A stretch of 36,209 nucleotides of DNA from Oscillospiraceae bacterium (lineage in GTDB: Bacteria; Bacillota; Clostridia; Oscillospirales; Ruminococcaceae). A program made the position numbers and the translations under genes. The stretch is from NCBI GenBank assembly GCA_022508885.1, contig JAFLUG010000011.1, forward strand, positions 1 through 36,209, in the 5' to 3' direction. This document shows positions 2,439 through 27,428 of the stretch, one piece after another (within the stretch, counting starts at the first letter, position 1; the number at the start of each line of letters is the position of its first letter). The notes under the pieces were generated by a model that was not told where the DNA came from, ran no database searches, and was given only the letters and a program-made list of their open reading frames with translations.

Positions 2439-2457
2439 ATGTTTGGGTGATTATAAT

Positions 2458-3657
2458 ATGATATTAAGACCGAATTATATTAACGCGTTAAAAACATACA
2501 GAGATATTCCGCTTGTAAAAATACTTGCGGGTGTGCGCCGCTGCGGGAAATCCACGATTTTGGAAATGCTTAAGAACGATCTCTTGGAAAGCGATGTAGC
2601 TGAAGAACACATAATCAGTATGCGTTATACCTCTCAAGAGCTTGAAGATGACATTACCGACAGCAAATCTATGTATAACGCAATAAAAGCACTTATGACG
2701 GATTCCGAAAAATACTATATCCTGCTTGACGAGGTGCAGGAGGTGTCGGGTTGGGAAAAAGCAGTCAACAGCTTACTTGAGAACGCAAACACCGACATAT
2801 ATATAACAGGCTCGAACTCAAAGCTAATGTCAAGCGAAATTTCCACATATCTGAGCGGAAGGTATATTTTGATACCCGTTTTCACACTTTCTTTCAAAGA
2901 ATATCTGGATTTTAAAAAGGCAAGTTCAGATTCTGCAAAAGAATTGCTGAATGATTATATCAAAACAGGCGGATTTCCTATTGTTGCGCTCGGCAGCTTT
3001 GACGACCGTTCTGCATATCAGATAGTGGAGGGCATTTACAACTCCGTTATCACAAACGATATTACAAGGCGGCACAACATCACAAATTTCGATTTGTTCA
3101 ACCGTGTAGTAAGATATATTGTAGAAAATGTGGGAAAGACTTTTTCGGCAAATACTATTGTGAATTTCTTAAAGAGCGAAGGGCGTTCTCTTTCGGTAGA
3201 GGCGGTATATAATTATCTTGAGTGGCTGGAGAAAGCATTTATAATTTACCGCTGCCGCCGTTATGACCTTCAGGGAAAGTCAGTGCTGAAAACACAGGAG
3301 AAGTTCTTCCTTGCCGATCCGTCGCTGAAATACTGTATAATGGGCTTTGACCCGAAATCTGTCTCGGCGATGCTCGAAAATATCGTATATTTCGAGCTGC
3401 TGCGGCGCGGTTATGAGGTGTATATCGGAAAAAACGCAGCGAAAGAGATCGATTTTGTTGCAGTTCGCAGAGACGAGCGCATTTATGTGCAGGTATGCCG
3501 AAATCTTCCCGAAAACTCAGATAGGGAGCTTGCAAATTTGCTTGAAATAAAGGACCACTACCCCAAATTTGTAGTAACGCTTGATGAGCTTGCTTCGGGA
3601 AATGTAAACGGCGTGAAAATCGTTCATTTAGCAGATTTCCTTTTGGTAGAATTCTGA
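2458..3657 (+). CDS. AAA ATPase with DUF4143 C-terminal domain
   Basis: A 399-residue ATPase. The Walker A motif is GVRRCGKST near residues 25-33, the Walker B region is YYILLDEVQEV near residue 85, and a sensor-like TGSNSKLMSSEI follows. The C-terminal half (from about residue 200) matches DUF4143, a nuclease-like fold: DITRRHNI, a winged-helix part, ENIVYFELLRRGYEVYIG, then EIDFVAVR. Such proteins are common, often several per genome, and their function is unsettled; some may be toxin- or defence-like. An upstream TTG at 2443 is in frame, but the ATG at 2458 has GGGTGA at the right distance and fits the promoter, so it is preferred. The gene stands alone between its promoter and a terminator. 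Confidence 0.85.
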   Translation: MILRPNYINALKTYRDIPLVKILAGVRRCGKSTILEMLKNDLLESDVAEEHIISMRYTSQELEDDITDSKSMYNAIKALMTDSEKYYILLDEVQEVSGWEKAVNSLLENANTDIYITGSNSKLMSSEISTYLSGRYILIPVFTLSFKEYLDFKKASSDSAKELLNDYIKTGGFPIVALGSFDDRSAYQIVEGIYNSVITNDITRRHNITNFDLFNRVVRYIVENVGKTFSANTIVNFLKSEGRSLSVEAVYNYLEWLEKAFIIYRCRRYDLQGKSVLKTQEKFFLADPSLKYCIMGFDPKSVSAMLENIVYFELLRRGYEVYIGKNAAKEIDFVAVRRDERIYVQVCRNLPENSDRELANLLEIKDHYPKFVVTLDELASGNVNGVKIVHLADFLLVEF

Positions 3658-8790: not shown

Positions 8791-11430
8791 ATGTCTAATA
8801 ATTTTGGTTTGTATTATCCAATGGCGTCACCATCATCACCACAGCCGAGATATGGGCAACCACCTCGTCCGCCTTTTACGGTAAATAGCAGCGATTCGTA
8901 TGAAGATGAGTACCATGATACATTAGAAACAACAATCTTATTTCCGGATGACAACAAAGAGCACATGATACTGGGAGTCGATGTAAGCACTATTAGTGAA
9001 CATCATAAACAAGTCACAGATTGCAACGGGTCGGAGTTTGGTAATAAAGGCAAGAGAGCAAGATCTTTAAAGTATAAGATCTTGTCTGACGGTTGTATCA
9101 GCCTTATACAAGTTTGGAGATCCTTTGACGAGAAGGGCGTTGAATACCAGCCTATGTGCGAGGTTGATATTATCTACCGCGAACCTATAAAGAAGCTTTG
9201 GCTGAATGTTAATGACATTTACCACAAGGACACTGCTCTACGCAAAGTATTGGAAGACAACGGCATCAGTTTCCGTAAGGACGGTTTTAGATTATGGTGC
9301 GAAAAGTTCAGCGAAGAGGTACATAAAGCCACGCCTCAGATATGCTATCTTGACTTTTATAAGGATAGCGAAGGTAGGTGGCATCATTCCAAAGATAAGG
9401 AAATCGCACAAAAAGCCGCCGATTCACTGGGGATTTTAGAACGGCTCGGAATTGACTTTACGGAAATTTCCGACGACTCCTTTCTTAGACTTACGCTATT
9501 ATTATACGGTATATGCGGAAGCCTTGCCGTTGTGATTCGCAGTATGGGGATTACTCCTATCGCAAAGCCGACGATAGTTTATCCGGAAGGCAGTGTGGCA
9601 CTTAACGACCTAAAGGCACTCTATTGTTCGGACAGCAACTATCCTCTTATACCGGACAAGTCGTTTGAAATCAAGATCCTTACCCTTCGTAATGAGGTAG
9701 TATTGGTACAGCTATCGAACAGCGAATATATGAGCAACAAGTGTCTTGAAGCCTTGTCTAACCACGATTTGGATTTAACTGCTCTCCCTATCCTACTCTC
9801 CGAAAACGAAAAGTATTTCAGCGGCAGAAATGATATACTGCTGTTGAACTACGATATTACGGCTATGGGCTGTATAAGCGACATACAGTGCTGGGCGGTA
9901 CGCGCTCTGCTGAATGATTCGAGCCTTGATAAAAGGATCAAGAATAGCTTTGATAGATACTTTATAATGCTCGAACAGGATACGGAAACGGTTTCAGTAA
10001 GAAACCTCGTCGCTTTGCTTATGGCTATGGCAGAAGTATACTTGCCGCGTATGGGTGTTATCGAAGAAAAGTTAGTATCTGTTATGCAGAAATACTATAG
10101 GTATCTTACCGAAAGCGTAGGCTCGTCGTCGGTAATAAAAGAGCGCCTTAAAGAATTCCTGCTCTCAAGGCGAGATATTCCTATCAAACCTTACCGCAGC
10201 GACTCTGCTCCTCGAGAAAATGTTATTTACTCTAAGGACGATATGCTTTTATTTCCACGAAGCGCTTTTATACATACCGCTAAAAGATGCGGGACAAACG
10301 GAACATCTTTAGCAGAGCTTTTATCCAACAACGATATTCTTATGAGAAACACGGGAGGCAATACACTGAATATGCGCCATGGCGGCAATACTTACCGTAT
10401 GTATGCCGTAAAATGCTCAGAGCTGTTCGATATCGGCGAGCTTCGACCGATGTGTGTAAACGAGTTTGAGCCGAAACCTCTGTATAAGCTGCCCATAGGA
10501 GAAGTAAACGGATATGAAATCTTTTTCGATATCTACTCATGTAACAGCAAAAATAACAATTCGTTTGCACTGATTACGGGAGTTACCGGCTCAGGAAAGT
10601 CCACTCTTTGTGAGACTATCGCAGTAAAAGCGGCAGAAGAAGGGTTGGCTGTGGTATGCTTGGGCGTTGAAGATCCATTTCCGTATTCGGATTACAACTT
10701 TTTTGAGCCTGCGGAAGATGAAGAAGTTTCTTTAAAGCGCTTTTCCGAGGAGCTGTATGCCATGCTAAGCGATGAGGAAAAAGAGCTTGCGGATACAGCT
10801 TTGGAGCTGATAAGAGAGCTGGACCTCAAAAGCTATGAGGATATCCTTAACAACTTTACCGCGCTTATATACGGAGAGGAATGTAAGGACAGCCTATTAG
10901 CTAAGGCAAGTGATGTGTTCGAACGGATTTCGGGCTTTTCGTGGAAAAAGGCAGTTATTGACGGAGAAATATCCCGTGTAGTTGTGCATACTCGTGAAGA
11001 AGCCGACCGATTGCTATTAGATTTCTTTAATTATAAGGCAAAGCAAGCGGAGGTTCGTTACACGATTTTGTTGCTTGACGAGGTACAGGAGTTCTCTTGG
11101 GATGGCAAATCGCCGCTTGTGTCGAAAATTCTCCGTCAGGGAAGAAAGTACGGGATCGTCGGAATACTTTCAACTCAGTATCTTACCGCAGATAACGGAA
11201 AGAATATAGCTTCCGCTTTAAAGCAAATCGAAACGCATTTTGTTTTCCGCCCGTCCGATGCTCTTGCCTCGGCAAAGCAACTGGGGTACACATCCGACAA
11301 GGATTTCAGAATACGAAATGTTCTGGAAATGCTTGATGCAGGAAAAGTTATGGCGAAGGGTCATATATCCACGGAAATATGCGCTTTAAACTATCCTGTA
11401 AGGTTTACTGTTAATAAGGAAGAGACATAA
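8791..11430 (+). CDS. HerA/FtsK-type ATPase of the integrative element
   Basis: An 879-residue protein. The first 30 residues are proline- and serine-rich and probably disordered. Residues about 60-550 show no motif I can name. The C-terminal third is a HerA/FtsK-like ATPase: GVTGSGKST near residue 596 (Walker A), ILLLDEVQEF near 758 (Walker B) and a GRKYGIVGILSTQYL segment near 785 that is typical of HerA, VirB4 and TraG relatives. No membrane segment is evident. Such ATPases pump DNA or protein; here it may move or partition element DNA, or supply a minimal transfer function. The start is clear, with GGAGG six bases before the ATG. It lies between the replication gene and excisionase/integrase, all on one strand. 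Confidence 0.75.
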   Translation: MSNNFGLYYPMASPSSPQPRYGQPPRPPFTVNSSDSYEDEYHDTLETTILFPDDNKEHMILGVDVSTISEHHKQVTDCNGSEFGNKGKRARSLKYKILSDGCISLIQVWRSFDEKGVEYQPMCEVDIIYREPIKKLWLNVNDIYHKDTALRKVLEDNGISFRKDGFRLWCEKFSEEVHKATPQICYLDFYKDSEGRWHHSKDKEIAQKAADSLGILERLGIDFTEISDDSFLRLTLLLYGICGSLAVVIRSMGITPIAKPTIVYPEGSVALNDLKALYCSDSNYPLIPDKSFEIKILTLRNEVVLVQLSNSEYMSNKCLEALSNHDLDLTALPILLSENEKYFSGRNDILLLNYDITAMGCISDIQCWAVRALLNDSSLDKRIKNSFDRYFIMLEQDTETVSVRNLVALLMAMAEVYLPRMGVIEEKLVSVMQKYYRYLTESVGSSSVIKERLKEFLLSRRDIPIKPYRSDSAPRENVIYSKDDMLLFPRSAFIHTAKRCGTNGTSLAELLSNNDILMRNTGGNTLNMRHGGNTYRMYAVKCSELFDIGELRPMCVNEFEPKPLYKLPIGEVNGYEIFFDIYSCNSKNNNSFALITGVTGSGKSTLCETIAVKAAEEGLAVVCLGVEDPFPYSDYNFFEPAEDEEVSLKRFSEELYAMLSDEEKELADTALELIRELDLKSYEDILNNFTALIYGEECKDSLLAKASDVFERISGFSWKKAVIDGEISRVVVHTREEADRLLLDFFNYKAKQAEVRYTILLLDEVQEFSWDGKSPLVSKILRQGRKYGIVGILSTQYLTADNGKNIASALKQIETHFVFRPSDALASAKQLGYTSDKDFRIRNVLEMLDAGKVMAKGHISTEICALNYPVRFTVNKEET

Positions 11431-14537: not shown

Positions 14538-16784
14538 CTATTTCCAATACCTCTCCAACGCATCATAACAGCATGTCATAAGCATTTCAGCATCAGCTTC
14601 CGACCAGTCTTTCATAATACTCTTGTCAATTTGAAGTATACCGAGATACTTAGAGTGACGCATATAGCCCATTCCCTCAAAGCGGTTGAAGGGCATTGAA
14701 AGGATCAGCCGTTCTACATCTTTTTCCGTGTAGTTGCCTTTAGTGAAAATACAGTTTTTCTTTTCAGCAGGTAGTCCGTTCCTAACGCGTTCTTCGTAAT
14801 ACCATGCAAAAGAGTCTACCACATCCGCTAAATGAACTTCTCCGTTTTCATTCATATTCGATAAAAAGGAAATAATGAACACAGGTTTATATGAATAGGA
14901 CATCTGCATTTCTTTGCAAAAATCGAGAAAGAGCTGTTTGCGGTTTGCGGCGGTAATCTCCGTCCAGCCGAATTTCTGACAGTATTCCTTTACCCGCTCA
15001 CGGTTAAAGTAATGCAAAGTTCTGTGCTCACTGATCGGCACATCCATATCGGGAACAATTTTACCTTCTTTTATGTATCTGCTTATTGTTTCGTCCTGTG
15101 CTGTCACATGACGCACAAGCTCCATTTCAGAATACATTTCATTCGCCTTATCCTGCCAGTTGAAGATATTGATTATTTCATAATCCAAAGCATGAATCGG
15201 ATAGTCAACCAAAACAGCAGGCTTTTCGCCTTTTTTTAACATATCCTTATCCCATTTGATACCATGCTTTGTTCCAAGCACAAGTCCTCCCGGAACATAT
15301 TCGGAAACATTAAGCAGACGGTGAAGCGAATACGGGCAGTTGAACATATTTGCATTATCCACAAAGTCAAATACCATAAGGAACTCCTTGCCTTCGTGTG
15401 TGCGCATTCCTCTGCCTAACTGCTGCATATAGATTGTTTTTGACATAGTAGGACGAGCCATAAACAGAACCTCTGTTATCGGGCTGTCCCAACCTTCATT
15501 TAACAGATCGCAAGCACATAGAACTTGTATATTCTTTTCTGCATAGTCTTTCAGAATTTGCTTCCTTAATTGTGCTTTTGTGCTTCCGGAAACAGCCTCT
15601 GCTCTTACTCCGCCTTCTCGGAGCAATTCTGCTATCGTATTCGCGTGATTTACCGAGGTACAGAATATAACCGTAGACTTACCGTAAGCGTATTCCATGT
15701 AGGTGTCTACAATAAGATTATTCCTATCGGGAATAACGATGGTCTCTTCAAGGTCAAGTGAGTTATACTTAAAGCCATTGATGCGAACATCTGACATGTT
15801 GATGTTTGTTTTTACACGAATACAGCGAACCTCACATAGAACGCCCGTCTCAACTGCATCTTTAATGTCAAGCTTATGTGCCACATTTTGAAAAACCTCA
15901 AGAAGATCTTCTCCGTCAGCCCGTTCAGGCGTTGCGGTGAGTCCAAGTGTAAACTTAGGACGGAAATAGGTAAGAATCTTAGTGTAACTCTTGGCTGAAG
16001 CGTGATGACATTCATCAATAATCAGATACTCAAAATCGTCGGGTTTGAATTGATCAAGGTTTCGGATTATGCTCTGAACACTGCCGCATACTACATAAGT
16101 ATCTGTGTCGTGATAATTTTCATAAAATCTGCCTACAGAAACATCTTTCCAAAGCGATCCAAAATTCTTCGTGCCCTGCTCGACCAGTTCCTTTGTATGA
16201 GCGAGAAATAGCACCCTCTTTCCTATCTGCTTGGCGTCCAACACTCCGATTGCTGATTTACCGGAGCCTGTTGCACCCTGCACGAGAGCAATAGTCTTTC
16301 CATCATCACGCATTTTGGCAAGATTTGCGAGTGCCTCCTCCTGATGCTCGCGCAATTCAAAAACAACGCCTTTTTGTGCGGGCGTATCGCCGTCAAAGTA
16401 TGTTAATGCGGGAGAATAACCGAGGAAGGTTATCAGCTCATCCTTTACTCGCTCAGGCGTTTTTTGAAGTTGTGTATCAGTCCAGCGAAATACCCGCCAG
16501 CCCTCAAAAATCATGCTATTTTGTTTTAGCAGGTCATCAACATACTTTTCCTGTGAAACCTTGTCCGGATTGTGCCAAACTTCCCCGTCAATCTCAAAAG
16601 CAACCTTGCCGTCCTCAGTCATTATGGCAAAATCAATCGTTCTGTGGTTACCGTAAATATCAACAAAAGGGTGCTGCAAATACACAAATTGACCTTTTTC
16701 CTCTCCGAATGCCTCGCAGAAAAGTTGTGCAAATTTTTCCTCAGCACCGCTGTCACCGGCACGGTCAGCTCTCTTCACTGCCAC
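14538..16784 (-). CDS. Nuclease-helicase fusion (DUF559-like plus SF2 helicase)
   Basis: A 748-residue fusion. Residues about 20-120 resemble a DUF559/Vsr-type PD-(D/E)XK nuclease: YGNHRTIDFAIM, then VAFEIDGEVWH, then GWRVFRWTD. Residues about 135-480 are a superfamily-2 helicase: Walker A GATGSGKSAIG, LFLAHTKELVEQ, DECHHASAKSY, LTATPERADGED and QLGRGMRTHEG. The last 250 residues have no motif I can name. The start is uncertain: TTG at 16790 is too close to the ribosome site AAAGGAG, so the GTG at 16784 is chosen. It overlaps the MazG-like gene by 20 bases, implying coupled translation. The fusion suggests DNA processing, perhaps restriction-like defence. Confidence 0.8.
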   Translation of the reverse strand: MAVKRADRAGDSGAEEKFAQLFCEAFGEEKGQFVYLQHPFVDIYGNHRTIDFAIMTEDGKVAFEIDGEVWHNPDKVSQEKYVDDLLKQNSMIFEGWRVFRWTDTQLQKTPERVKDELITFLGYSPALTYFDGDTPAQKGVVFELREHQEEALANLAKMRDDGKTIALVQGATGSGKSAIGVLDAKQIGKRVLFLAHTKELVEQGTKNFGSLWKDVSVGRFYENYHDTDTYVVCGSVQSIIRNLDQFKPDDFEYLIIDECHHASAKSYTKILTYFRPKFTLGLTATPERADGEDLLEVFQNVAHKLDIKDAVETGVLCEVRCIRVKTNINMSDVRINGFKYNSLDLEETIVIPDRNNLIVDTYMEYAYGKSTVIFCTSVNHANTIAELLREGGVRAEAVSGSTKAQLRKQILKDYAEKNIQVLCACDLLNEGWDSPITEVLFMARPTMSKTIYMQQLGRGMRTHEGKEFLMVFDFVDNANMFNCPYSLHRLLNVSEYVPGGLVLGTKHGIKWDKDMLKKGEKPAVLVDYPIHALDYEIINIFNWQDKANEMYSEMELVRHVTAQDETISRYIKEGKIVPDMDVPISEHRTLHYFNRERVKEYCQKFGWTEITAANRKQLFLDFCKEMQMSYSYKPVFIISFLSNMNENGEVHLADVVDSFAWYYEERVRNGLPAEKKNCIFTKGNYTEKDVERLILSMPFNRFEGMGYMRHSKYLGILQIDKSIMKDWSEADAEMLMTCCYDALERYWK

Positions 16785-17094
16785 TGTCAATCACTCCTTT
16801 AAGCCTAAGCCTCTTTTCAAATCCACCGCGCTTTTCAGCCTTTTCCTTTCTAACCTGCTCCAATTCCTCAACGGAATACCCACGAGCGACAACGACTGCA
16901 TATATTACCTCAAGCAAATCCGCAAGCTCATCAAGCGACTTATCCGCCTGATATTCGGCAAGCTCTTCATTTAACTTCCTGTCAAGATATTGAATATATG
17001 TATCCGTGTTCATTTCTTCTGTGATACACTTCTTCCCGGAAGCCTCAATGATTTCAGGTATTTTATCCCTGATAAGTTTATTGTATTCGATCAT
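16765..17094 (-). CDS. MazG-like nucleoside triphosphate pyrophosphohydrolase
   Basis: A 109-residue protein of the all-alpha NTP pyrophosphohydrolase (MazG/PRA-PH) superfamily, which cleaves nucleoside triphosphates to monophosphates. The opening YNKLIRDKIPEII is typical of a widespread subgroup, and the metal-binding acidic residues are present in LNEELAEY (EE) and LDELADLLEVIYAV (E..D). The start is set by TAGGTGAT six bases before the ATG and a consensus promoter at 17174-17202. Its 3' end overlaps the nuclease-helicase gene. Members are usually house-cleaning enzymes, but the coupling here hints at a joint role. Confidence 0.85.
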   Translation of the reverse strand: MIEYNKLIRDKIPEIIEASGKKCITEEMNTDTYIQYLDRKLNEELAEYQADKSLDELADLLEVIYAVVVARGYSVEELEQVRKEKAEKRGGFEKRLRLKGVIDSGSEES

Positions 17095-17202: not shown

Positions 17203-17248
17203 TAATAAATTGTGAAAAAGGCGGTATAATCAAAGTTTGCAATCCTTG

Positions 17249-18060: not shown

Positions 18061-21000
18061 TCAAGGCAACGAAAGCTGCTCTGATAAATAAAACGCGTGT
18101 TCTATATGCTGTTTTGCTTCGGATTCCAATATTTCCACATTTGAAAGCTGTAATTTTCTGAATCGGAGCTGATACACCATATCAAAGCAATTCGTCACTG
18201 CCGCTGTTCCAAGGTGTGTCAAACAAATCAGCTGTATATTGAAATGATGAGCAATCCTGAACATCGGTTCAAGAAGGTGAGGAGCGGATATGGGACCAAA
18301 TGGATTATCAAGAATCAGTACACCTTTTGTAATATTAAGATTTTCTGTAATTCCTCTCGTATAGTTCATCACAGATACAACAAGCGAAAATAATACAACA
18401 AACTGCTCACCTCCCGAATTTGCTTTAAGCGCGTTCTCCCATGAACGATAACCGCTGTTCTGAATATTTTTATCAATTTTATACACCTTGACAGGAATAG
18501 TTTCCTTTCCTATATAACAATTTAAAAGTCTTCTTATCTCCAAATGATTACGATATTTATTCCCGGATTCTTCTTGTCTGTATTTTTTTATTTGCTCTAT
18601 GATATAACGATTGATTCTTTCTGCGGGAATGCTGCTTGTAGAATCAACTTCAGGTAATTCAATCCGTATCATCTGTTTCTTGATATTACCGATTTGTACA
18701 CCTGATTTCTTTGAAAGGATATTAAGGTTTTCATATAACCGTCCTGAGCGCTGGAGACAGTGATCTACAAGCTGTTTCCTACTGTCTTCAACATCTCTCA
18801 AAATAATAGAGAGTTGTTCGATACGTTCGCGATATCTGCGAACATCATCTTCTGTGCGTTCATATAGCGTAAAATACCTGTCCCCTTTGATTTGTGTATT
18901 GTTTATAACAGAGATAATTCCGTCAAGCGTTCCGGTAAATAAACTATGTTCACTTCGAAACGGCTCAAGCTCACGGGTATGATATTTTTTTGTATCTTCT
19001 TCCGCTCGATGAAGATTTCTAATGCAGGCATCGATCTTATCCTGAATCACATTTATGTCAACAATTTCTTCAAGGATTTTGGGTGTATAATCCTCCATTT
19101 CTTTTTGAAATTGTGTAGCATATCTCGCAGCATATTTTCTATCTGATTTAAATTCGTCCAATCGCTTTTCACACTTACGGCAATCGGATTCGACAGACTT
19201 TAGCACAGCTTCACAGTCTTTGATACGCCGTTCAAAATCCAAACCAACCTCGGAACGCTCCAACAGCTTAACATTTAACTCTTTGAAATTGCGTTCGGAT
19301 TTCTTTAAATTGTTTTCAGCTAACTTAAAGTCGCCGTCAGCTTTCGTGTATGCTTTTTCTGACTGTTCATAATCCCTAACAGACTGTCTTCTCTGTTCCT
19401 CTGTATAGCGATAAGCGGTGTCGGTATATTCTGTTGTTTCGTATTCTTCCCGGTCTAATCCAAAACGTTTGAGGTCAGATTCTTTTTTCTTGAGCAGAAT
19501 CTTTATTTCTTCGATTTGTTTTTGCAAACTCTTTTTGTCAGATGAACGCTGAGATTGAAACAGTTGATATTCCTCCCGCATTGTCTGATAATTATCGGAA
19601 AGTAAATCTGCTTTCTCGGTATCTTTCAACTCCTCAATCAGACCCCGATACTCCAACAGATGATTTTCCAGTATTTCCATTCTTGCTTTGCACTCGTATA
19701 TCAAATCATTTGTATCGCGTTCTTCCCCTTGTCTCGATTTAATTAAATCAGACAACTGTTTACAGCTTGCTTCAATATTTGAAATTTCCGTACAAAGCTG
19801 TTCAAACTGTTTGATCTTATCACAGATACCTTCAAATTCTTTTCTGCTTTGTTCTGCATTTTGTTTTTGGCTTTGCTGTTCATTATATAACTTTTTGAGT
19901 TTTTCTTTTTCTCTCTGAATTTCTTCAAAACGGTTATCCAAATCGGATAATTGTTTTTCCAAATCATCAAGGTTTTTTTTGTGAGAATCAATGTCGGCAA
20001 GTATTTGACGCTCATAATCGGCAGGATATGAAAACCGTATCAATACCTTTCGTTCTTCTTCCCATTCATCAATCTGACGCTTGAAACTCTGAGTACCTTC
20101 CCTCGCCTTTGTTAATTCATTTCGTACACGCTCTGCATAGGCAGAGACATCAGAAAAATAGTTCTTATCATAGGCAGAAAGAAACGGCACTTGTATATTC
20201 CACTTTTTCTCTGCCATATCAGCAAGCTCTAAGCGCGTATATACAGGAACGATTGCCGATAGCCATATGTCCTCTATTGTAAGGCTCAGCAGTTTTTCCT
20301 GTTCTCTTTTGGAATCCACGATAACAGAATAAGCTACAAGCGGGTTGATTTCAAGAATAGCTTCTTGTATTTCGTGAGGCAGGTTCAAAATATAACGCTC
20401 GCCGGTTTGAAAATGGATCCCACTATCCTGCAAAAAATCAACTGCGGATTTAGAGAGATGAAGCTGTCCGTTTTCAACACACCTTGACTGTTCTGTTAAC
20501 ATTTCGGCAGAGCGTTCTGATTTCCTCAATTTTTCCTGCAATTCTTCAACTATTAATTCCAGACAAGCCAAAGGCTCCTCGGAAAATATTCTTTCCGAGG
20601 GAATGGATAGATGTTCCAATACTCGAGAAGCGTCATTGTAGTCTTTTCGATATTGTGATAGATATGTTTTTGAATTTTCTAATTGTGCATTTACACCGTT
20701 TTGTTGTTGATTAAGTTCTATACGCTTGGTGTTTTGTTCTTCAAGCTCCTGTTCGAGCTGTTTTTCTTCTTTTTCATAGGTCTGTAATTTATTTGTCGAA
20801 TCGGTTATTCTTTTAGTATAATTAGCACGGATATTGCTGATATCCTCCGCAGAAAACCTCTCATCCAGCATAATGTCTATCCGCACACCGAGGTTGTCTA
20901 AACCTTCATTGATTTGTTCAGACAATGTTTCCTTGCGTCCAATCAACCTGCTGCACTTTTCTTTTTCACCGGAAAGCTTTAGGGTAAGCTCGTCAATATC

Positions 21001-22350
21001 TTTCTGTATCGATTGCAATTCTTCGGAATGCTGACGAACTTGTTTTTCATTAAGACGATATTCTTCATCGTCCTGCTTTTCCCGTTCGCTTGCAGCAATA
21101 AAAAGAGAATACATGAGAGAAAGTATATGCAAATTCAAGTCGCCCTGCTCAAGTTCTCTTAGCTGTAAATGCAATGCTTCTTCTTTATTTTGCTGTTCTA
21201 TCAGGTCTGCGTACTCTTTGGCGGCATTAAGCACCTTGATCTGATGTTCAAATTGCTCGCGCCTTATTTTTGCTTTTTCTTTATTCTGTGCAGTTTCCGA
21301 AAGCTGAATTTCAGCCGTGTCATACTCATCTTTCGCGATATAATATTCTTCCGATGCTTTTTCTGAGCGTATATGATATAGCTTTTCTTTTAGTGTTTGA
21401 GCTTTTGCTTCAAGTCCCTCTTTTTCTTCTGTTTTCTGTTTTATATGATGCTCCAAAGTAAACATGTGATCTGCTAACAAGCGAATTGCCTGTATTTTTT
21501 CATCTTCCGCATTCCACATATTTTTCATATATGAGAGTATTTCTTGTAATTTATCGGTAAACATTGTTATCTGCGATTGTAAGCGTAAATTTTCCTCCTG
21601 TCCCTCATAGCTTTTTGCATAATTTAAAAACATTTCTTCAAGCTCTTCCAATGAAGATTTATCGTTCGGCATTATCCCCGGAATAATAAACCGATCAAGC
21701 AGTCTGTCAGTTGTATTGTACTTTTCAAAAAATTTTGAGATACCTCCCTCGACCTCATTTATAGGTATAAGAATATTTTCCCATTCTTTATGAAGAATAC
21801 CGTATTCCTCAAGACATTTCTGATAACGGCGTGTATCATCAGATGCAAAATATTCTACCTTTCCGTTTTGTAGTTTTTTTCTAAGATCATCGAAGGATAT
21901 TGCTCGGATTTGATTGCCAGTTCGTTCAGTAAGAGGAAGATTTATCAAATCAAGCTTATCGCCTGTTCGTGCGTAATTGTGCAAAAAAGTATAATACCGT
22001 ATCGTTTTGCTTTCAGTTTCAATGTCCGCATTTGTACCGGCGGCCAATGCTATACCCGTAAGCAAACTGTTTGAAGAACCGTCCAATGCCCATTCTATCA
22101 GAACAAACGCATGATCTGTGCCACTCTGAAAATAATCGGTGATACTGCGCTTTTGCACCGTTGCCTTAGGACAAATCGGCTGTAACATAATTTGAACAAG
22201 CACTGATTTTCCACCGCCGTTTTCCAGATTAAGCAGGGTGTCGATTGGTTTCCCTTGTGTATCTTCAGTACAAAACATCTCATCCGGTATTAACCTTGTC
22301 CCCTCATTAAACCGAAAATTTACAATGCGAATTTTACGGATCGCAGGCAT
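18061..22350 (-). CDS. jetC: Wadjet JetC, SMC-like ATPase
   Basis: A 1429-residue SMC-like ATPase, the motor of the Wadjet complex, which extrudes loops on small circular DNA before cleavage. The N-terminal Walker A is NGGGKS (residues 44-49), after FRFNEG and LLNLE. Residues about 270-1250 form long coiled coils with a break near residues 620-760 that would be the hinge. The C-terminal head has the ABC signature NSGGEQF (near 1311) and Walker B LILDN (1345-1349). An Asn (1349) follows the Walker B Asp where many SMC proteins have Glu; this may be normal for the subtype. The ATG has AGGAGGA seven bases upstream and overlaps the end of jetB by 17 bases. Last gene of the operon. Confidence 0.92.
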   Translation of the reverse strand: MPAIRKIRIVNFRFNEGTRLIPDEMFCTEDTQGKPIDTLLNLENGGGKSVLVQIMLQPICPKATVQKRSITDYFQSGTDHAFVLIEWALDGSSNSLLTGIALAAGTNADIETESKTIRYYTFLHNYARTGDKLDLINLPLTERTGNQIRAISFDDLRKKLQNGKVEYFASDDTRRYQKCLEEYGILHKEWENILIPINEVEGGISKFFEKYNTTDRLLDRFIIPGIMPNDKSSLEELEEMFLNYAKSYEGQEENLRLQSQITMFTDKLQEILSYMKNMWNAEDEKIQAIRLLADHMFTLEHHIKQKTEEKEGLEAKAQTLKEKLYHIRSEKASEEYYIAKDEYDTAEIQLSETAQNKEKAKIRREQFEHQIKVLNAAKEYADLIEQQNKEEALHLQLRELEQGDLNLHILSLMYSLFIAASEREKQDDEEYRLNEKQVRQHSEELQSIQKDIDELTLKLSGEKEKCSRLIGRKETLSEQINEGLDNLGVRIDIMLDERFSAEDISNIRANYTKRITDSTNKLQTYEKEEKQLEQELEEQNTKRIELNQQQNGVNAQLENSKTYLSQYRKDYNDASRVLEHLSIPSERIFSEEPLACLELIVEELQEKLRKSERSAEMLTEQSRCVENGQLHLSKSAVDFLQDSGIHFQTGERYILNLPHEIQEAILEINPLVAYSVIVDSKREQEKLLSLTIEDIWLSAIVPVYTRLELADMAEKKWNIQVPFLSAYDKNYFSDVSAYAERVRNELTKAREGTQSFKRQIDEWEEERKVLIRFSYPADYERQILADIDSHKKNLDDLEKQLSDLDNRFEEIQREKEKLKKLYNEQQSQKQNAEQSRKEFEGICDKIKQFEQLCTEISNIEASCKQLSDLIKSRQGEERDTNDLIYECKARMEILENHLLEYRGLIEELKDTEKADLLSDNYQTMREEYQLFQSQRSSDKKSLQKQIEEIKILLKKKESDLKRFGLDREEYETTEYTDTAYRYTEEQRRQSVRDYEQSEKAYTKADGDFKLAENNLKKSERNFKELNVKLLERSEVGLDFERRIKDCEAVLKSVESDCRKCEKRLDEFKSDRKYAARYATQFQKEMEDYTPKILEEIVDINVIQDKIDACIRNLHRAEEDTKKYHTRELEPFRSEHSLFTGTLDGIISVINNTQIKGDRYFTLYERTEDDVRRYRERIEQLSIILRDVEDSRKQLVDHCLQRSGRLYENLNILSKKSGVQIGNIKKQMIRIELPEVDSTSSIPAERINRYIIEQIKKYRQEESGNKYRNHLEIRRLLNCYIGKETIPVKVYKIDKNIQNSGYRSWENALKANSGGEQFVVLFSLVVSVMNYTRGITENLNITKGVLILDNPFGPISAPHLLEPMFRIAHHFNIQLICLTHLGTAAVTNCFDMVYQLRFRKLQLSNVEILESEAKQHIEHAFYLSEQLSLP

Positions 22351-23023
22351 CTATTGTTCCTCCTATAATAGAATGGATCTCGGAAATTCGATCCTGAGAC
22401 AGAAAATACGGCATTAAATCATTCAACTTTACAGTTGGTTTCCACATGCCATCAGATTCGTATAGCAGTTCCTCATCTTTAAATTTTTTGATAATCTTTT
22501 TGAAACAACCATGTTTTGTGTCAATTGAAGTGGAATCATCGCCACGCTTTGCAAGCCAGCTATCTGCCAATCGCAAAAAATCCAAGCTGTATTGTGCAGA
22601 AGCATTTTTCAGCTTTTCTCCTTCATCATGCGCCTTCTGACAATGCTCTGTAAAATCATCAAGAAAATCTGATTCTCTGATATAATATCTCGTTTGCAAA
22701 CTGTTCCCCTTACCGCCAAACAGCTCATACAGCAAAAACATTGCCATATAATTAAGCAAATACAACTCATCCAGCCTTTCATTTCCGACAGAACGCTGAA
22801 AATCCTTGTTATTCTGGGAAAACAGTTCATTCGTAGGATTTGGCAAAAGGTACAGTCTGCCGTTGGTGCGATAAATCGTGAAATCCAGCTCCTGTTCCAT
22901 AACAGCAAGCTCTGCAGAAATTTCAGCGTCGCAAGAATCATCATAAAATACCGGCTCATGCGCTCTTGTAATATATCCTTTTTCCATCAGTTTTGCAAAT
23001 AATCTTATGGTCTCAGATTTCAT
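22334..23023 (-). CDS. jetB: Wadjet JetB, KITE-like subunit
   Basis: A 229-residue protein in the position and size of JetB, the winged-helix (KITE/MukE-like) partner of the SMC motor. It lacks motifs I can name beyond a conserved-looking core (LDELYLLNYMAMFLLYELFGG and FLRLADSWLAKRGDD). It seems to match the DUF6063-type JetB of Firmicute systems rather than the DUF4194 type, from memory. It starts within an ATGA overlap with jetA and overlaps jetC by 17 bases, so all three are translationally coupled. The call rests mainly on operon position. Confidence 0.85.
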   Translation of the reverse strand: MKSETIRLFAKLMEKGYITRAHEPVFYDDSCDAEISAELAVMEQELDFTIYRTNGRLYLLPNPTNELFSQNNKDFQRSVGNERLDELYLLNYMAMFLLYELFGGKGNSLQTRYYIRESDFLDDFTEHCQKAHDEGEKLKNASAQYSLDFLRLADSWLAKRGDDSTSIDTKHGCFKKIIKKFKDEELLYESDGMWKPTVKLNDLMPYFLSQDRISEIHSIIGGTIDACDP

Positions 23024-24546
23024 TTTACCACCTCCACAGTCAGATCATTCATTTTAATCTGCCTGTTTCCTATAGACGGAAACATAACCATGTCCTCCGT
23101 GCTGCGTATAATCACTAACTGCATTTGCACAAGTTCTTTAGGCAACTCACTCAAACAATATGAAAGATCAAATTCTCCGACAGGAATGATTATACTGTGC
23201 TGTTCCTCTCTCCATGCCGCAATGTTTATCTCTCCAATCGCATAGAGTTTAAGCATAACGTCCGGCAGCGCATTTTCCTGCAGCTGTAATTCCAACATTT
23301 CGTCGGTCAGTGTTTTCAGATAATCACTGAATCGAAAATCAGTACAGCTATCTGCATAAAGAAACAATGATTTAATTATATTAACATATCTTTTATTACG
23401 AATATCTGCTGTTGTTTCAATATTTTCTTCAATTCCAATATCGATCCCGTTATCTCCCGCACACTCTCTGACAGCATTCTGCCTTCCGTAGAAATAATCA
23501 AGACTAAATATATGAAGAAAAGCAGGGATGTACAAAGGTTGAAACAGTCTGCCGATATCCTTTGCATTGTATGCGCTTAATTTACGGAGCAACGAAAGCA
23601 ATTCCTGTTCAAAATCAATATGACCTGAATGCAAGTAAGAAAAACTATCATCCAAGAGCTGTGCATATAAGTCAGACAATGTAAATTTCTGATTATATAC
23701 ACGGCTTTGTTCATTGATGACTGTATCTATGTTTTCCAAAATTTCACTTATTTCACGCTCAGTCTGCCTAATATTTCCGCTATCGGATATGTCGATATCT
23801 GCTATCGCCTGCAGCTTTGCTGACACAAGTGTACGGATATCGCTTAACTGCTTGCTTTCGTCCTCAAAAGAATACTTGACCTGAGTGACGATCTCTTCAT
23901 ACTCTTCTACGGAAACATCTGAAATGCTTGTCCTGCACCGCAGCATAAAATCGTCCATTCTTGTTTTCAGATTTCTCACGCGACTGACCAGTTCTCGACT
24001 TTCCCGCAATGCTTTAGAATAATTTCCGCGCCGTATAAATTCCTGAAGTTTGAAACGGCTGACCGAAAAATCAAGCTCACTGTCGATCTCTTTCGTGCGA
24101 AACAGAAATTCATACGCTTCATTTGTAAGAACATAATTGCCGCCTTGATGTTCTATCAGAATAAGAGTGCTCTGTTCCCTGAATTGTCTTTCGTTGCTTT
24201 GAAATGTATCAAACAAACGAATCTTTCCGCCACTTTGAAGCACATCAGTCACAATATAATCCGCAAGTTTTTCGGCGTATTCCGGTAAATACCCATATAT
24301 GTCCGATAATTCACGAAGAAAAACAATAATATCTTGTTTGGTACAGCGTTCTCCATACCGCAATGTACTGTCCATGATAAACACAAGAACCATAAGAACA
24401 AGGTTATCTATTCTGTTCTCATTATTGCCAAAAATCTCTTGAATATCATTATGAGTGCTTCGATTTATCAGGTATTTGACAAGGTTTACAAATCTCATAC
24501 GCTTTTCAAAATCCTGTAATAATTCCCAAGATTCACTTGAAATCAT
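23020..24546 (-). CDS. jetA: Wadjet JetA, kleisin-like subunit
   Basis: A 508-residue protein in the position of JetA, the kleisin that bridges the SMC heads. The N-terminal 170 residues look like a winged-helix bundle (NLVKYLINRSTHNDIQEIF; YVLTNEAYEFLFRTKEI), followed by long helical stretches (residues about 175-300) and a C-terminal mixed domain. This resembles the DUF5716-type JetA of Firmicutes, from memory. The gene starts four bases after the jetD stop, with a GAGGT ribosome site inside the end of jetD, and ends in an ATGA overlap with jetB. Confidence 0.85.
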   Translation of the reverse strand: MISSESWELLQDFEKRMRFVNLVKYLINRSTHNDIQEIFGNNENRIDNLVLMVLVFIMDSTLRYGERCTKQDIIVFLRELSDIYGYLPEYAEKLADYIVTDVLQSGGKIRLFDTFQSNERQFREQSTLILIEHQGGNYVLTNEAYEFLFRTKEIDSELDFSVSRFKLQEFIRRGNYSKALRESRELVSRVRNLKTRMDDFMLRCRTSISDVSVEEYEEIVTQVKYSFEDESKQLSDIRTLVSAKLQAIADIDISDSGNIRQTEREISEILENIDTVINEQSRVYNQKFTLSDLYAQLLDDSFSYLHSGHIDFEQELLSLLRKLSAYNAKDIGRLFQPLYIPAFLHIFSLDYFYGRQNAVRECAGDNGIDIGIEENIETTADIRNKRYVNIIKSLFLYADSCTDFRFSDYLKTLTDEMLELQLQENALPDVMLKLYAIGEINIAAWREEQHSIIIPVGEFDLSYCLSELPKELVQMQLVIIRSTEDMVMFPSIGNRQIKMNDLTVEVVK

Positions 24547-24550
24547 TCTA

Positions 24551-25579
24551 TTACCTCATGTTTTCTGCCAATATCGGATATGAAAGTATCTCCTGCGGCA
24601 AACGCTTATTCTCCTGTAAGATCTGCAATATATGCGCTTGCTCATATTGAGAAAATTCAGGAAGAATTTCTGTAACATCGGGTTTGATATATCTTTTGTC
24701 ATCACTATCCGGAAGTATCAGATCCCGACTTAACTCCAACATCTTATGATAGGCAGGCATAAATAAAGAAATCGAAATATCTTCCGCTTCATGACATAAG
24801 CGCAAAAATATATCAAATCCTGCTCTATCAATATCTCCGCAGTACAAATATTCAACCTTATCTGCTCCCAAAAAACGAGAGTAAGATTGAAATTTCCCTT
24901 TTCCTGTAATATCATTACCCTGTCCGAAAATTACCCCGTCAATAGATATTCCAAATAACCTGCGGTTTCCGTTTTCGTACATTAGTCTGCGGATATTAAA
25001 CCAAATATCTTTATTTTCACAGATAAGCAAAGTCATTTGTGCCTTTCGGACGGGAATATAATCTGAGAAGCATTGTTCAGGCGTCTCATAATAATGAAGA
25101 TTTTTACCGGAAATTCCAAGGTTGTTCAATAATGTTAAGTGATTATCCAATATCTTCTCATCGCCAAAAACAGAAAATGACCGCTCTCGCCTTGACATCA
25201 TAGTACAATTATTGTTATGAATCAACCATTCACTTAATTGAAATAAAAAATCTTTATGATTTATAAATTGTTCACGATTTCGTGTCAAATATCCGTTTGC
25301 TGTAATACGGGGATGCAGAGAGTATATTTCCTCAACGGATATTTGTGTCTTATCTTCAAATTTAACATTGTACCGCAGATACAACGGATTTTTCAAGTTT
25401 CCGTCTGTACCGCTGCTCTTGATCGGCAGCAATATACCTTGCTCAGCAAGTTCAATAATCTGTTCCCGATATGTTTCAGATTGGTTACACAAATCCATTA
25501 GTTCATTCAGATTGATTCTCTTTCTCGGAAATAGTTTTAACGACCTGTATAATTCATTATCTTTGTCTAAAGCATTCAT
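24551..25579 (-). CDS. jetD: Wadjet JetD, Toprim nuclease subunit
   Basis: A 342-residue protein: the DNA-cleaving subunit of Wadjet, with a C-terminal Toprim domain (DUF2220 type). The Toprim residues are present: the Glu in LLICENKDIW (residue 188) and the Asp pair in YCGDIDRAGF (249 and 251). The N-terminal part should form the arm/winged-helix region. Two starts are possible. The ATG at 25612 has a weak ribosome site; the ATG at 25579 has GAGGTGAG four bases upstream and gives a more protein-like N-terminus, so it is preferred. Its place before jetA differs from the type I jetABCD order and fits a Firmicute subtype (II or III; not resolved here). Confidence 0.88.
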   Translation of the reverse strand: MNALDKDNELYRSLKLFPRKRINLNELMDLCNQSETYREQIIELAEQGILLPIKSSGTDGNLKNPLYLRYNVKFEDKTQISVEEIYSLHPRITANGYLTRNREQFINHKDFLFQLSEWLIHNNNCTMMSRRERSFSVFGDEKILDNHLTLLNNLGISGKNLHYYETPEQCFSDYIPVRKAQMTLLICENKDIWFNIRRLMYENGNRRLFGISIDGVIFGQGNDITGKGKFQSYSRFLGADKVEYLYCGDIDRAGFDIFLRLCHEAEDISISLFMPAYHKMLELSRDLILPDSDDKRYIKPDVTEILPEFSQYEQAHILQILQENKRLPQEILSYPILAENMR

Positions 25580-25622
25580 ACGGCTCACCTCTAAACATCC
25601 TTTTTTTGACATTCGCTCACTT

Positions 25623-26840
25623 TCAATCCATCATATTGCGGAAATACGGGTCTGCTCCGTAACGCCCCTCAAGATACTGCTTATCAAATGCAGCAGTAGG
25701 CTGAATATGATTACCGTTTTCATCCTTAATTTCATACAAAGAATACAAATCGCTGGATTCGTCCGCTCGTTTGCAAGCAAACCAAATCTCATCAGTACGG
25801 AAAACCGTGCTCTTCATCGTGGAAATATCGTGAGATGTAAACACCAACTGCGCGTTCTTGGTATTGATTTCAGGATTCTTGAAAAGCATAATTATATACT
25901 TCAAAAGCTTAGGGTGAAGTTTGACCTCAAGTTCGTCAGCCATAAGCACACCACCGCATGATATTGCTTTAAGAGCATACGGAAAGAAATTAAATAACTT
26001 TTTTGTCCCTTCTGACTCGTCAATTAAATCCATTATAAAGCTTTTATCATTCACAATATGTTCAACAGATATATTGTGACTGTTTGTTTCAGGCAGGTTC
26101 TCTATTTTATAATCACTAATATTTATACCCATTTCATTTATAAGAGATAAAAACTTTTGCTTTTCTTCATCGTTTTGTTCAAGCTTTATTTTCTCTTGAA
26201 CATAATCTGCATAATTGAATACAACACAACTTTTAAACCAACTGATTGCTCTGTCAATAGGTTCAAGCTTATAGTTTATTCCAAGAGATGAAAGCAATGG
26301 CAACGAATCGTTTATTTGAGTATTAATTGAGGCTTTTCTTATGCATGATCCAAGTGTAATTTCCCCTTTTGAACGCTCAAACACTGTTAAAGTACGGCTA
26401 CATTTTTTTAATTCTTTACGGTACATATTTTCTTCAAGAATTTTTTCCTGTTTTAACGAAATAAAATATTTGTACTCATACTCATCATCGGGTCTGAAAA
26501 ATAAGGTAAAATCCGTTGGATTATAGGCAGAATTTTCATCAAAGTTAAACGGAGCGCAATCAAATGGAATCCTTTTATCGTCTATTCCCGATTTTAGTCT
26601 ATAAATTGGATTCATAACTATTGCTACAACACAATGAAACGCTCTTATAACATTTGACTTTCCGCCTGCATTAGGACCGTAAATAACCGAAACAGGCAAA
26701 AACTCCTTGCCGTCAGAATCACGAAGCAAAGAATCCTTGAAATTCTTGGTTTCATCTTTAGATGTTGCTACCGCCTGCAAATCAAACACAGCCTCGTCCT
26801 TATATGATCTGAAATTCTTAAATGAAAATTGACAAAGCAT
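25623..26840 (-). CDS. AAA15/OLD-like ATPase leading the Wadjet operon
   Basis: A 405-residue ABC-type ATPase of the AAA15/AAA21 group, which includes OLD-, RloA- and abortive-infection-like proteins. Motifs: FKNFRSYKDEAVFDLQAV at the N-terminus, Walker A IYGPNAGGKSN (near residue 54), the segment IDESEGTKKLFNF (near 270), Walker B GGVLMADELEVKLHP (near 296) and the H-loop LVFTSHD. There is no fused Toprim nuclease, and no RloB-like partner next to it. It ends 10-43 bases before jetD, with no promoter or terminator between, while a consensus promoter lies just before it; it is therefore probably the first gene of a five-gene operon. It may add an ATP-dependent sensor, or be an independent defence gene that shares the promoter. 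Confidence 0.85.
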   Translation of the reverse strand: MLCQFSFKNFRSYKDEAVFDLQAVATSKDETKNFKDSLLRDSDGKEFLPVSVIYGPNAGGKSNVIRAFHCVVAIVMNPIYRLKSGIDDKRIPFDCAPFNFDENSAYNPTDFTLFFRPDDEYEYKYFISLKQEKILEENMYRKELKKCSRTLTVFERSKGEITLGSCIRKASINTQINDSLPLLSSLGINYKLEPIDRAISWFKSCVVFNYADYVQEKIKLEQNDEEKQKFLSLINEMGINISDYKIENLPETNSHNISVEHIVNDKSFIMDLIDESEGTKKLFNFFPYALKAISCGGVLMADELEVKLHPKLLKYIIMLFKNPEINTKNAQLVFTSHDISTMKSTVFRTDEIWFACKRADESSDLYSLYEIKDENGNHIQPTAAFDKQYLEGRYGADPYFRNMMD

Positions 26841-26861
26841 ATAATCATCCTTTCGCTATTT

Positions 26862-26890
26862 ATTATATTATAATTGTGCCCAAATGTCAA
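26862..26890 (-). promoter_or_regulatory. Consensus promoter of the ATPase-Wadjet operon
   Basis: On the minus strand TTGACA (26890-26885), a 17-base spacer and TATAAT (26867-26862), perfect hexamers. Transcription would start near 26855, about 15 bases before the ATG at 26840. No other good promoter was seen before jetD. Confidence 0.8.
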
Positions 26891-26901
26891 TATAAAATAC
26901 C

Positions 26902-26928
26902 GATTTTAAGAATTTTTTTCTTAAAATC
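26902..26928. repeat. AT-rich palindrome upstream of the Wadjet operon promoter
   Basis: A perfect 11-bp inverted repeat (26902-26912 with 26918-26928) with a TTTTT centre, starting 12 bases upstream of the operon's -35 box. It could be an operator or simply a hairpin; no T-tail follows. Confidence 0.6.
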
Positions 26929-27066
26929 AGGATTTAAAACTTGAATTCATTACTTTAACCATTAAGTTCTATTTTTCGAGTAGCCTTTATATCTGCGGGG
27001 ATACAGCATATACTGTAGATTACGCTAAACACAAAAGATTGCAAATAATTCTACTAAAAAATCGTA

Positions 27067-27095
27067 TTGACAAAATAAATAAGTTAAGCTATAAT
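27067..27095 (+). promoter_or_regulatory. Consensus promoter with no gene behind it
   Basis: TTGACA (27067-27072), a 17-base spacer and TATAAT (27090-27095). No protein-coding frame with a ribosome site follows before the terminator-like hairpin at 27137-27162. It may make a small RNA, or be the surviving promoter of a lost gene. Confidence 0.65.
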
Positions 27096-27383: not shown

Positions 27384-27428
27384 CTACGAACCAGAGGGTC
27401 GGGGGTTCGAATCCCTCCTGGCGTGCCA
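27384..27428 (+). other. tRNA-Arg(ACG) 3' fragment, attachment site of an island
   Basis: These 45 bases match nucleotides 32-76 of a tRNA: anticodon loop CTACGAA (anticodon ACG), stem strand CCAGA, variable loop GGGTC, T stem-loop with GGGGG, TTCGAAT and CCCTC, acceptor strand CTGGCGT, then G and CCA. The bases before the loop (GCTTT) do not pair with CCAGA, so the 5' half is missing. Breaks at the anticodon loop are typical for integrases that use tRNA genes. The original terminator follows at 27485, so this marks the island edge, with chromosome to the right. The intact gene is not in the window. Confidence 0.8.

What the first reader, a model, noticed from the sequence alone, without database searches (positions are those of the whole stretch)
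18061..26890. Wadjet operon led by an AAA15/OLD-like ATPase
A full Wadjet set (order jetD-jetA-jetB-jetC) is packed with overlaps or tiny gaps. An AAA15-type ATPase precedes jetD by 10-43 bases with no promoter or terminator between, and the only consensus promoter lies before the ATPase. Known Wadjet systems need only four genes, so the ATPase could be a sensor, a regulator or a second defence function added to the operon.
Basis: partly seen in the sequence, partly recalled or inferred. Interest (0 to 1): 0.7.

Follow-up and report, generated by a model that had tools for sequence, protein, structure and literature searches.

The report
Wadjet operon behind an orphaned ATPase
A complete four-gene anti-plasmid defence system sits directly behind the leftover ATPase half of a different, anti-phage system, most likely through a DNA rearrangement rather than because the ATPase is a fifth working part.

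Summary
On the minus strand there is an intact type III Wadjet set, jetD-jetA-jetB-jetC. An ATPase gene ends 10 bases before the first possible jetD start and 43 before the likelier one. A 12-of-12 consensus promoter precedes the ATPase.

The ATPase is not a known Wadjet part and has no Toprim domain. It is AbiLi-type (PADLOC E 4.5e-78). Of 44 relatives with a visible 3' end, 42 are followed directly by rloB/abiLii (35 whole, 2 cut by contig ends, 5 broken). Here rloB is missing, and no RloB was found in the 90.6%-complete assembly.

None of 100 related jetD loci (97 distinct) has this ATPase in front of jetD. Sixteen of the 19 closest carry a promoter-like block before jetD that the window lacks. 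Best reading: a rearrangement put an orphan AbiLi ATPase in front of jetDABC, which now probably relies on the ATPase's promoter.

A second orphan AbiLi ATPase occupies the place of jetC in another Wadjet locus. A partner swap (ATPase controlling JetD's Toprim nuclease) is therefore not excluded, but untested. Interest is modest.

The parts
25623..26840 (-). orphan AbiLi-type ABC ATPase (405 aa), Walker A GPNAGGKS, DE of Walker B and SHD motif kept; partner gene rloB/abiLii missing
   Evidence: PADLOC AbiLi 4.5e-78, Pfam AAA_21 3.8e-26, alignment A2, relatives followed by RloB
24551..25612 (-). jetD (type III), Toprim nuclease by family knowledge; probable start at 25579; motifs ENKD and GDIDRAG intact
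   Evidence: PADLOC JetD3 6.6e-69, Pfam JetD_C 8.7e-7, alignment A1
23020..24546 (-). jetA (type III; kleisin by family knowledge)
   Evidence: PADLOC JetA3 5.1e-108
22334..23023 (-). jetB (type III; KITE by family knowledge)
   Evidence: PADLOC JetB3 6.8e-51, Pfam DUF6063 4.9e-23
18061..22350 (-). jetC (type III SMC-like ATPase)
   Evidence: PADLOC JetC3 1.2e-119
25580..25622 (-). junction between ATPase stop and probable jetD start: jetD-proximal part resembles the jetD leader of relatives, ATPase-proximal part could be the old AbiL junction and rloB start
   Evidence: similarity suggestive only (leader score median 11 versus 7 for 159 control gene starts, 13% of controls reach 11)
26862..26890 (-). 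consensus promoter TTGACA-17-TATAAT before the ATPase, presumed promoter of the whole unit
27384..27428 (+). 45-base 3' half of tRNA-Arg(ACG), distal att-type copy: probable right end of an integrative island that carries the operon

Best explanation
This is an ordinary type III Wadjet (jetDABC) whose front end was rearranged. An AbiL/RloAB-type system once lay just upstream, at the end of a tRNA-Arg integrative island. A deletion (or an insertion of the ATPase alone) removed rloB/abiLii and left jetD without a promoter block of the kind its relatives have. The AbiLi ATPase is now the first gene of the unit, and its strong consensus promoter probably drives jetDABC. Wadjet should still work as described for type I systems: JetABC (SMC, kleisin, KITE) extrude DNA and sense small circles, and the JetD Toprim nuclease cuts them. 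The ATPase, without its effector, is probably a passenger or at most affects dosage. Shown here: gene identities, intact frames, the missing RloB, absence of the ATPase before jetD in the relatives examined, and absence of the relatives' jetD promoter block. Inferred: the deletion event, co-transcription, and that the ATPase does nothing for Wadjet.
For: Gene identities. Of 44 ATPase relatives with a visible 3' end, 35 have a whole RloB next door, 2 are cut by the contig end inside rloB, 5 have a broken rloB, 2 have none. Pfam names RloB in 8 of 8 such proteins tested; 7 pass the curated cut-off and the broken L052 scores 28.3 against 31.5. No Jet match at E 1e-3 near those ATPases, L081 apart (flanks of about 1.5 kb for most, up to about 10 kb for 14 fetched stretches). 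No RloB in the own genome. None of 80 and none of 20 related jetD loci has the ATPase before jetD. 16 of 19 closest jetD relatives have the promoter-like block with at most 9 mismatches in 32; the window's best in the 400 bases before jetD is 16, equal to shuffles (mean 15.9, minimum 12). The ATPase stops where 8 of 10 close relatives read TGG. The four Jet proteins are similarly diverged from the sister clade, with no one subunit out of line.
Against: The window's jetDABC is sister to the 15 complete close relatives, not nested among them (support 1.0 for both clades), and L075, L086 and L087 lack the block, so 'lost' cannot be told from 'never had'. The 32-base block was chosen from these same relatives, and over the whole minus strand of the window a 9-mismatch match occurs far away at 17203. 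The jetD leader match is not significant alone. The ATPase frame is intact and 68 of 73 otherwise invariant residues are kept, more than a useless gene need keep, although it has the most private changes of 13 sequences (5; next 4). A second orphan AbiLi ATPase lies in a Wadjet locus (L034).
Confidence: 0.62

Rival explanations
1. Partner swap: the AbiLi ATPase, which in AbiL holds or triggers a Toprim effector (RloB/AbiLii), now does the same for JetD, itself a Toprim nuclease, making a five-gene Wadjet with an added trigger or safety catch.
For: RloB is reported as related to OLD-Toprim domains and AAA antitoxins of this kind as pairing with several toxins (PMC10440598, passages); AriA sequesters Toprim AriB in PARIS (PMC12409363, passages). 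Four aligned RloB sequences share FDRD and an E before it, which I recall as Toprim-like. The ATPase lies next to jetD with rloB gone and its frame intact. A second orphan AbiLi ATPase follows jetDAB in place of jetC in L034.
Against: Absent in this position from 100 related jetD loci. In L034 the ATPase is at the other end, has 176 bases of separate upstream sequence with a stretch that looks like a promoter by eye, and jetC is gone. [quoted passage not shown] No interaction was tested.
Confidence: 0.12
2. Independent neighbours: jetD has its own promoter inside the 3' end of the ATPase, and the ATPase happens to lie upstream, as varied genes do at other jetD loci.
For: 10/12 promoter-like sites at 26548-26520 and 25918-25891; 22 of 76 jetD loci have a same-strand ORF of at least 80 aa within about 100 bases.
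Against: Such sites are common by chance in this AT-rich DNA (49 found, 32.4 in shuffles), and the TATAAT of 25918-25891 overlaps codons of a conserved protein stretch (YII).
Confidence: 0.16
3. The ATPase still works with an RloB encoded elsewhere in the genome.
For: The assembly is 90.6% complete, so a gene could be missing.
Against: No RloB match in the own genome; rloB, whole, cut or broken, is adjacent in 42 of 44 relatives.
Confidence: 0.04
4. Assembly artefact: the ATPase-jetD junction is a chimera in a metagenome-type assembly of 176 contigs.
For: The junction was seen in one assembly only: the 33-mer is in 1 of 43 genomes of the genus, the own one (up to 3 mismatches), and in no viral contig; no reads were available and metagenome contigs could not be scanned.
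Against: Same strand, short gap, ribosome-site-like stretch kept and no frame broken, which a random chimera would rarely give.
Confidence: 0.06

Closest known systems
Type III Wadjet (JetABCD)
   Same: All four proteins match the type III PADLOC models; the order D-A-B-C is that of the related loci where the genes are visible.
   Different: Preceded by an AbiLi-type ATPase; the promoter-like block before jetD of most of the closest relatives is missing.
AbiL / RloAB-type abortive infection pair (AbiLi ATPase plus AbiLii/RloB Toprim)
   Same: The ATPase matches AbiLi over its whole length (1-403) and close relatives have RloB next door.
   Different: The effector gene rloB/abiLii is absent, so the system is incomplete.
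PARIS (AriA ATPase with AriB Toprim), Gabija, OLD nucleases
   Same: Same broad class of ABC ATPase; an AriA model also matches (2.5e-26); fold search gives Rad50, SMC heads, RecF, a retron-Eco7 chain and OLD; a sequence profile finds OLD and PtuA chains weakly.
   Different: Scores far below AbiLi; no AriB looked for beyond the window's named genes and none named there; no fused Toprim domain.
L034 (unnamed class-level relative G423): jetDAB followed by an AbiLi ATPase
   Same: An orphan AbiLi-type ATPase (4.9e-80) stands next to type III Wadjet genes without RloB.
   Different: The ATPase lies after jetB in place of jetC; a congener has jetC there.

Membership tests
Wadjet type III | jetA, jetB, jetC and jetD adjacent, with type III models | tested here: met
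Wadjet type III | JetD Toprim acidic residues kept | tested here: met
   ENKD and GDID columns: E, D, D and D invariant in A1, 5 sequences; role of these residues recalled from family knowledge
Wadjet type III | restricts small circular plasmids | not testable with these tools
   needs an assay
AbiL / RloAB system | AbiLi ATPase | tested here: met
AbiL / RloAB system | AbiLii/RloB effector beside the ATPase | tested here: not met
   no room for it in the gap and no RloB in the genome; best RloB tblastn hit among the window rows printed has E 0.07
Five-gene Wadjet with ATPase subunit | ATPase conserved before jetD in related operons | tested here: not met
   0 of 80, 0 of 20
OLD / Gabija | Toprim domain fused to the ATPase | tested here: not met
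   405-aa protein; AAA_21 is the only family over its cut-off

The most novel reading that the evidence does not exclude
AbiLi-type ATPases can leave their own Toprim effector (RloB) and be recruited to Wadjet as controllers of another Toprim nuclease, JetD. The window and, independently, L034 would be two such recruitments, making a five-gene Wadjet that could answer phage triggers as well as plasmids.
Probability: 0.1. Interest if true: 0.7.

Novelty: new member of a known kind. Interest (0 to 1): 0.28.

Why it matters
As read here it matters little: a type III Wadjet with a rearranged front end, and a warning that tight same-strand packing in defence islands does not make a new subunit. It still gives a natural case of one defence operon placed behind another's promoter, and a testable pair (AbiLi ATPase and JetD) for the idea that Toprim effectors and their ATPases are interchangeable.

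Tried and rejected
ATPase as a conserved Wadjet subunit: rejected on neighbourhoods. ATPase as OLD or Gabija: rejected (no Toprim). RloB remnant elsewhere in the window: none convincing among the rows printed. Leader similarity as proof of a deletion scar: too weak by itself. A mosaic ATPase: its last 318 bases have third-position GC of 0.462 against 0.277 before, a rise larger than in any of 13 relatives; not pursued. Structure: the ATPase model (mean pLDDT 71.8) gives only the broad class of ABC ATPase heads, with low TM-scores; the RloB model was too poor to search (pLDDT 52.8), and one RloB sequence finds nothing in the PDB. JetD in viral contigs: none; junction 33-mer: none in viral contigs, and only the own genome among 43 of the genus. 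Plasmid and phage collections gave only distant ATPases, the rows listed at about 25-32% identity, and three distant JetD hits on plasmids. Rfam: nothing in the window at gathering scores.
Full report
What is there. The minus strand between 18061 and 26840 holds five intact genes: an ATPase and then jetD, jetA, jetB and jetC. PADLOC models call the four Jet proteins type III Wadjet with strong scores, and the ATPase AbiLi (E 4.5e-78), far above AriA, PtuA or GajA. Pfam gives AAA_21 for the ATPase, JetD_C for JetD and DUF6063 for JetB. The ATPase has the P-loop GPNAGGKS, DE after the Walker B strand, and SHD (motif names recalled). JetD keeps ENKD and GDIDRAG. A 12-of-12 consensus promoter lies just before the ATPase.

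What the ATPase belongs to. I collected relatives of the ATPase from 391 genomes of the class (25 genomes with E at most 1e-30, the window's own included), 394 of the order (13 with E at most 1e-40, own included), 398 of the phylum (4 with E at most 1e-40, own included) and from viral contigs (7 loci), plus L081 from the jetD search; these samples overlap, and each place was counted once. Of 46 loci examined, two end inside the ATPase (L156, L171). Of the other 44, 35 are followed by a whole RloB: 33 ORFs of 196-245 aa, all of which fit a profile built from those same ORFs, and L198 and L199, judged by tblastn over nearly the full length. Two are cut by the contig end within rloB (L150, L153, read by eye). 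Five have a broken rloB (L052, L060, L066, L172, L176; L060 and L176 read by eye; in L066 the ATPase is also broken). Two have none (L065, L155). Pfam names RloB in 8 of 8 such proteins tested, one of them (L052, broken) below the curated cut-off. The ATPase of L034, found through jetD, is not in this count; it has no RloB. This is the AbiL/RloAB architecture. Papers seen as passages describe AbiLii as a Toprim effector of AbiL and RloB as related to OLD-Toprim domains (PMC10440598), and list AbiL with PARIS among ATPase-Toprim systems (PMC12409363). In the window the RloB gene is missing, and no RloB was found in the 90.6%-complete genome.

What stands before jetD elsewhere. A scan of genome contigs (84,980 species) with a JetD alignment returned the 80 best loci of 118 confirmed. 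None has this ATPase before jetD; 76 of the 80 have at least 400 bases upstream. Twenty loci from the relatives and class searches (one further fragment, L022, was left out) also have none before jetD; at least one of them, L032, begins only 208 bases before its jetD match. A profile search of all 100 finds four ATPases of this kind (E at most 1e-5) in the DNA held: L081 (a complete ATPase-RloB pair that ends 3.4 kb before jetD with two genes between), L034, and two weak hits in L097 and L104 after jetC, where L097 has a different ATPase overlapping a further gene. Upstream neighbours of jetD vary: 22 of 76 have a same-strand ORF of at least 80 aa within about 100 bases (mechanical ORFs, approximate starts). 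Of 10 of these 22 scanned, Pfam finds an McrBC component, HNH, Fic, FtsK, MCP, GGDEF, a lactamase-flavodoxin and a predicted AAA-ATPase, and nothing for two. Five loci of Butyrivibrio and Pseudobutyrivibrio (L103, L107, L108, L112, L123) have a 101-aa protein ending 5 bases before jetD; the L108 one is a helix-turn-helix protein by Pfam.

The junction. Sixteen of the 19 closest jetD relatives share a promoter-like block, TTGCTT-17-TACAAT with TG before the second box, ending 51-75 bases before a fixed JetD codon, with at most 9 mismatches in 32; L075, L086 and L087 lack it. The block was picked from these relatives. The window's best match in the 400 bases before jetD has 16 mismatches, the same as shuffled DNA (mean 15.9, minimum 12); over the window's whole minus strand the best is 9, at 17203, far from jetD. 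The window keeps a leader TTTAGAGGTGAGCCGTATG like the relatives' TTAGAGGTGGCAATGTATG, but the score is only suggestive (median 11 against 7 in 159 control gene starts, of which 13% reach 11). On the other side the ATPase ends at a TGA where 8 of 10 close relatives have TGG, mostly followed by a GGAGG-like stretch before rloB, and the next start in the window reads MSKKG, which could be what remains of rloB. Together these fit a deletion that took rloB and the DNA before jetD. They do not prove it: the window's jetDABC is sister to the 15 complete close relatives (support 1.0), so it may never have had their promoter. The junction was found in no other genome of the genus (1 of 43, the own one).

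Is anything decaying? The four Jet proteins of the window are diverged from the sister clade to a similar degree as one another (identity to the clade against identity within it: JetD 66 and 80%, JetA 67 and 82, JetB 75 and 89, JetC 56 and 72), with no single subunit out of line. The ATPase keeps 68 of 73 residues that are invariant in 12 relatives, with five private changes, two of them just after the Walker B DE (D305E, A306V). That is the highest number of the 13 sequences (next: 4 of 72), but its branch is also long. So the ATPase is neither clearly under full constraint nor clearly dead.

A second case. In a congener jetB (85% identical) is followed directly by jetC. The L034 ATPase has 176 bases of separate upstream sequence with a stretch that looks like a promoter by eye. 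This suggests that orphan AbiLi ATPases have been joined to Wadjet loci more than once, which fits recombination within defence islands and leaves the partner-swap idea open.

Setting. The ATPase begins 544 bases from a 45-base copy of the 3' half of tRNA-Arg(ACG) at 27384-27428. In three congeners looked at (G022, G029, G031) the same 45 bases bound stretches of about 10.5 to 15.7 kb, each with an integrase 37-39% identical to the window's 11848-13242 gene on the DNA fetched. An intact tRNA-Arg was seen in two of them (L195, L197); only in L197 does the integrase lie right next to it. No intact tRNA-Arg was found in the window, which begins at a contig end, so the other end of the island was not seen. 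The operon therefore probably sits at the far end of a mobile island, a likely place for such rearrangements.

Literature. Two searches of the held library, for Wadjet together with AbiL, RloB or AbiLii and for accessory genes of Wadjet, list no paper whose title speaks of an AbiLi-Wadjet operon; apart from PMC10440598 (passages) I opened none of those listed. JetABCD mechanism statements come from passages of PMC10586767, which notes that most research so far was on type I systems.

Verdict. Observation confirmed; 'Wadjet with an ATPase subunit' not supported; 'half of another defence system in front of Wadjet' supported. Interest is modest.

Noticed in passing
L034:3890-8766: Type III jetD-jetA-jetB followed by an orphan AbiLi-type ATPase in the place of jetC; a congener has jetC there.
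   Followed up: partly
window 27384-27428: 45-base 3' half of tRNA-Arg(ACG), probable distal end of an integrative island; congeners G022, G029 and G031 have stretches bounded by the same repeat, G031 with three copies in a row.
   Followed up: partly
L103, L107, L108, L112, L123: A 101-aa protein (helix-turn-helix in L108, the one scanned) ends 5 bases before jetD in five Butyrivibrio and Pseudobutyrivibrio loci: a recurring candidate Wadjet regulator.
   Followed up: partly
L052, L060, L172, L176: rloB is broken while the AbiLi ATPase frame before it is open, four times; in L066 both are broken.
   Followed up: partly
window 27067-27095 (+): A second 12/12 consensus promoter, pointing to the tRNA copy, with no plus-strand ORF of 60 aa or more between it and the copy.
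   Followed up: no
window 26900-26930: A 13-pair inverted repeat just upstream of the ATPase promoter, operator- or terminator-like.
   Followed up: no
window 25623-25940: The last 318 bases of the ATPase gene have third-position GC 0.46 against 0.28 for the rest: possible mosaic.
   Followed up: no
window 14538-16790, 8791-11430, 2443-3657: Other defence-like genes in the same region: a helicase with a weak MTES_1575 nuclease match, an ATPase with a mad8-like part, a PDC-S01 protein.
   Followed up: no
L097:18281-20178: After jetC in a Butyrivibrio, an ATPase gene overlapping a 249-aa downstream gene, looking like another ATPase-effector pair.
   Followed up: no
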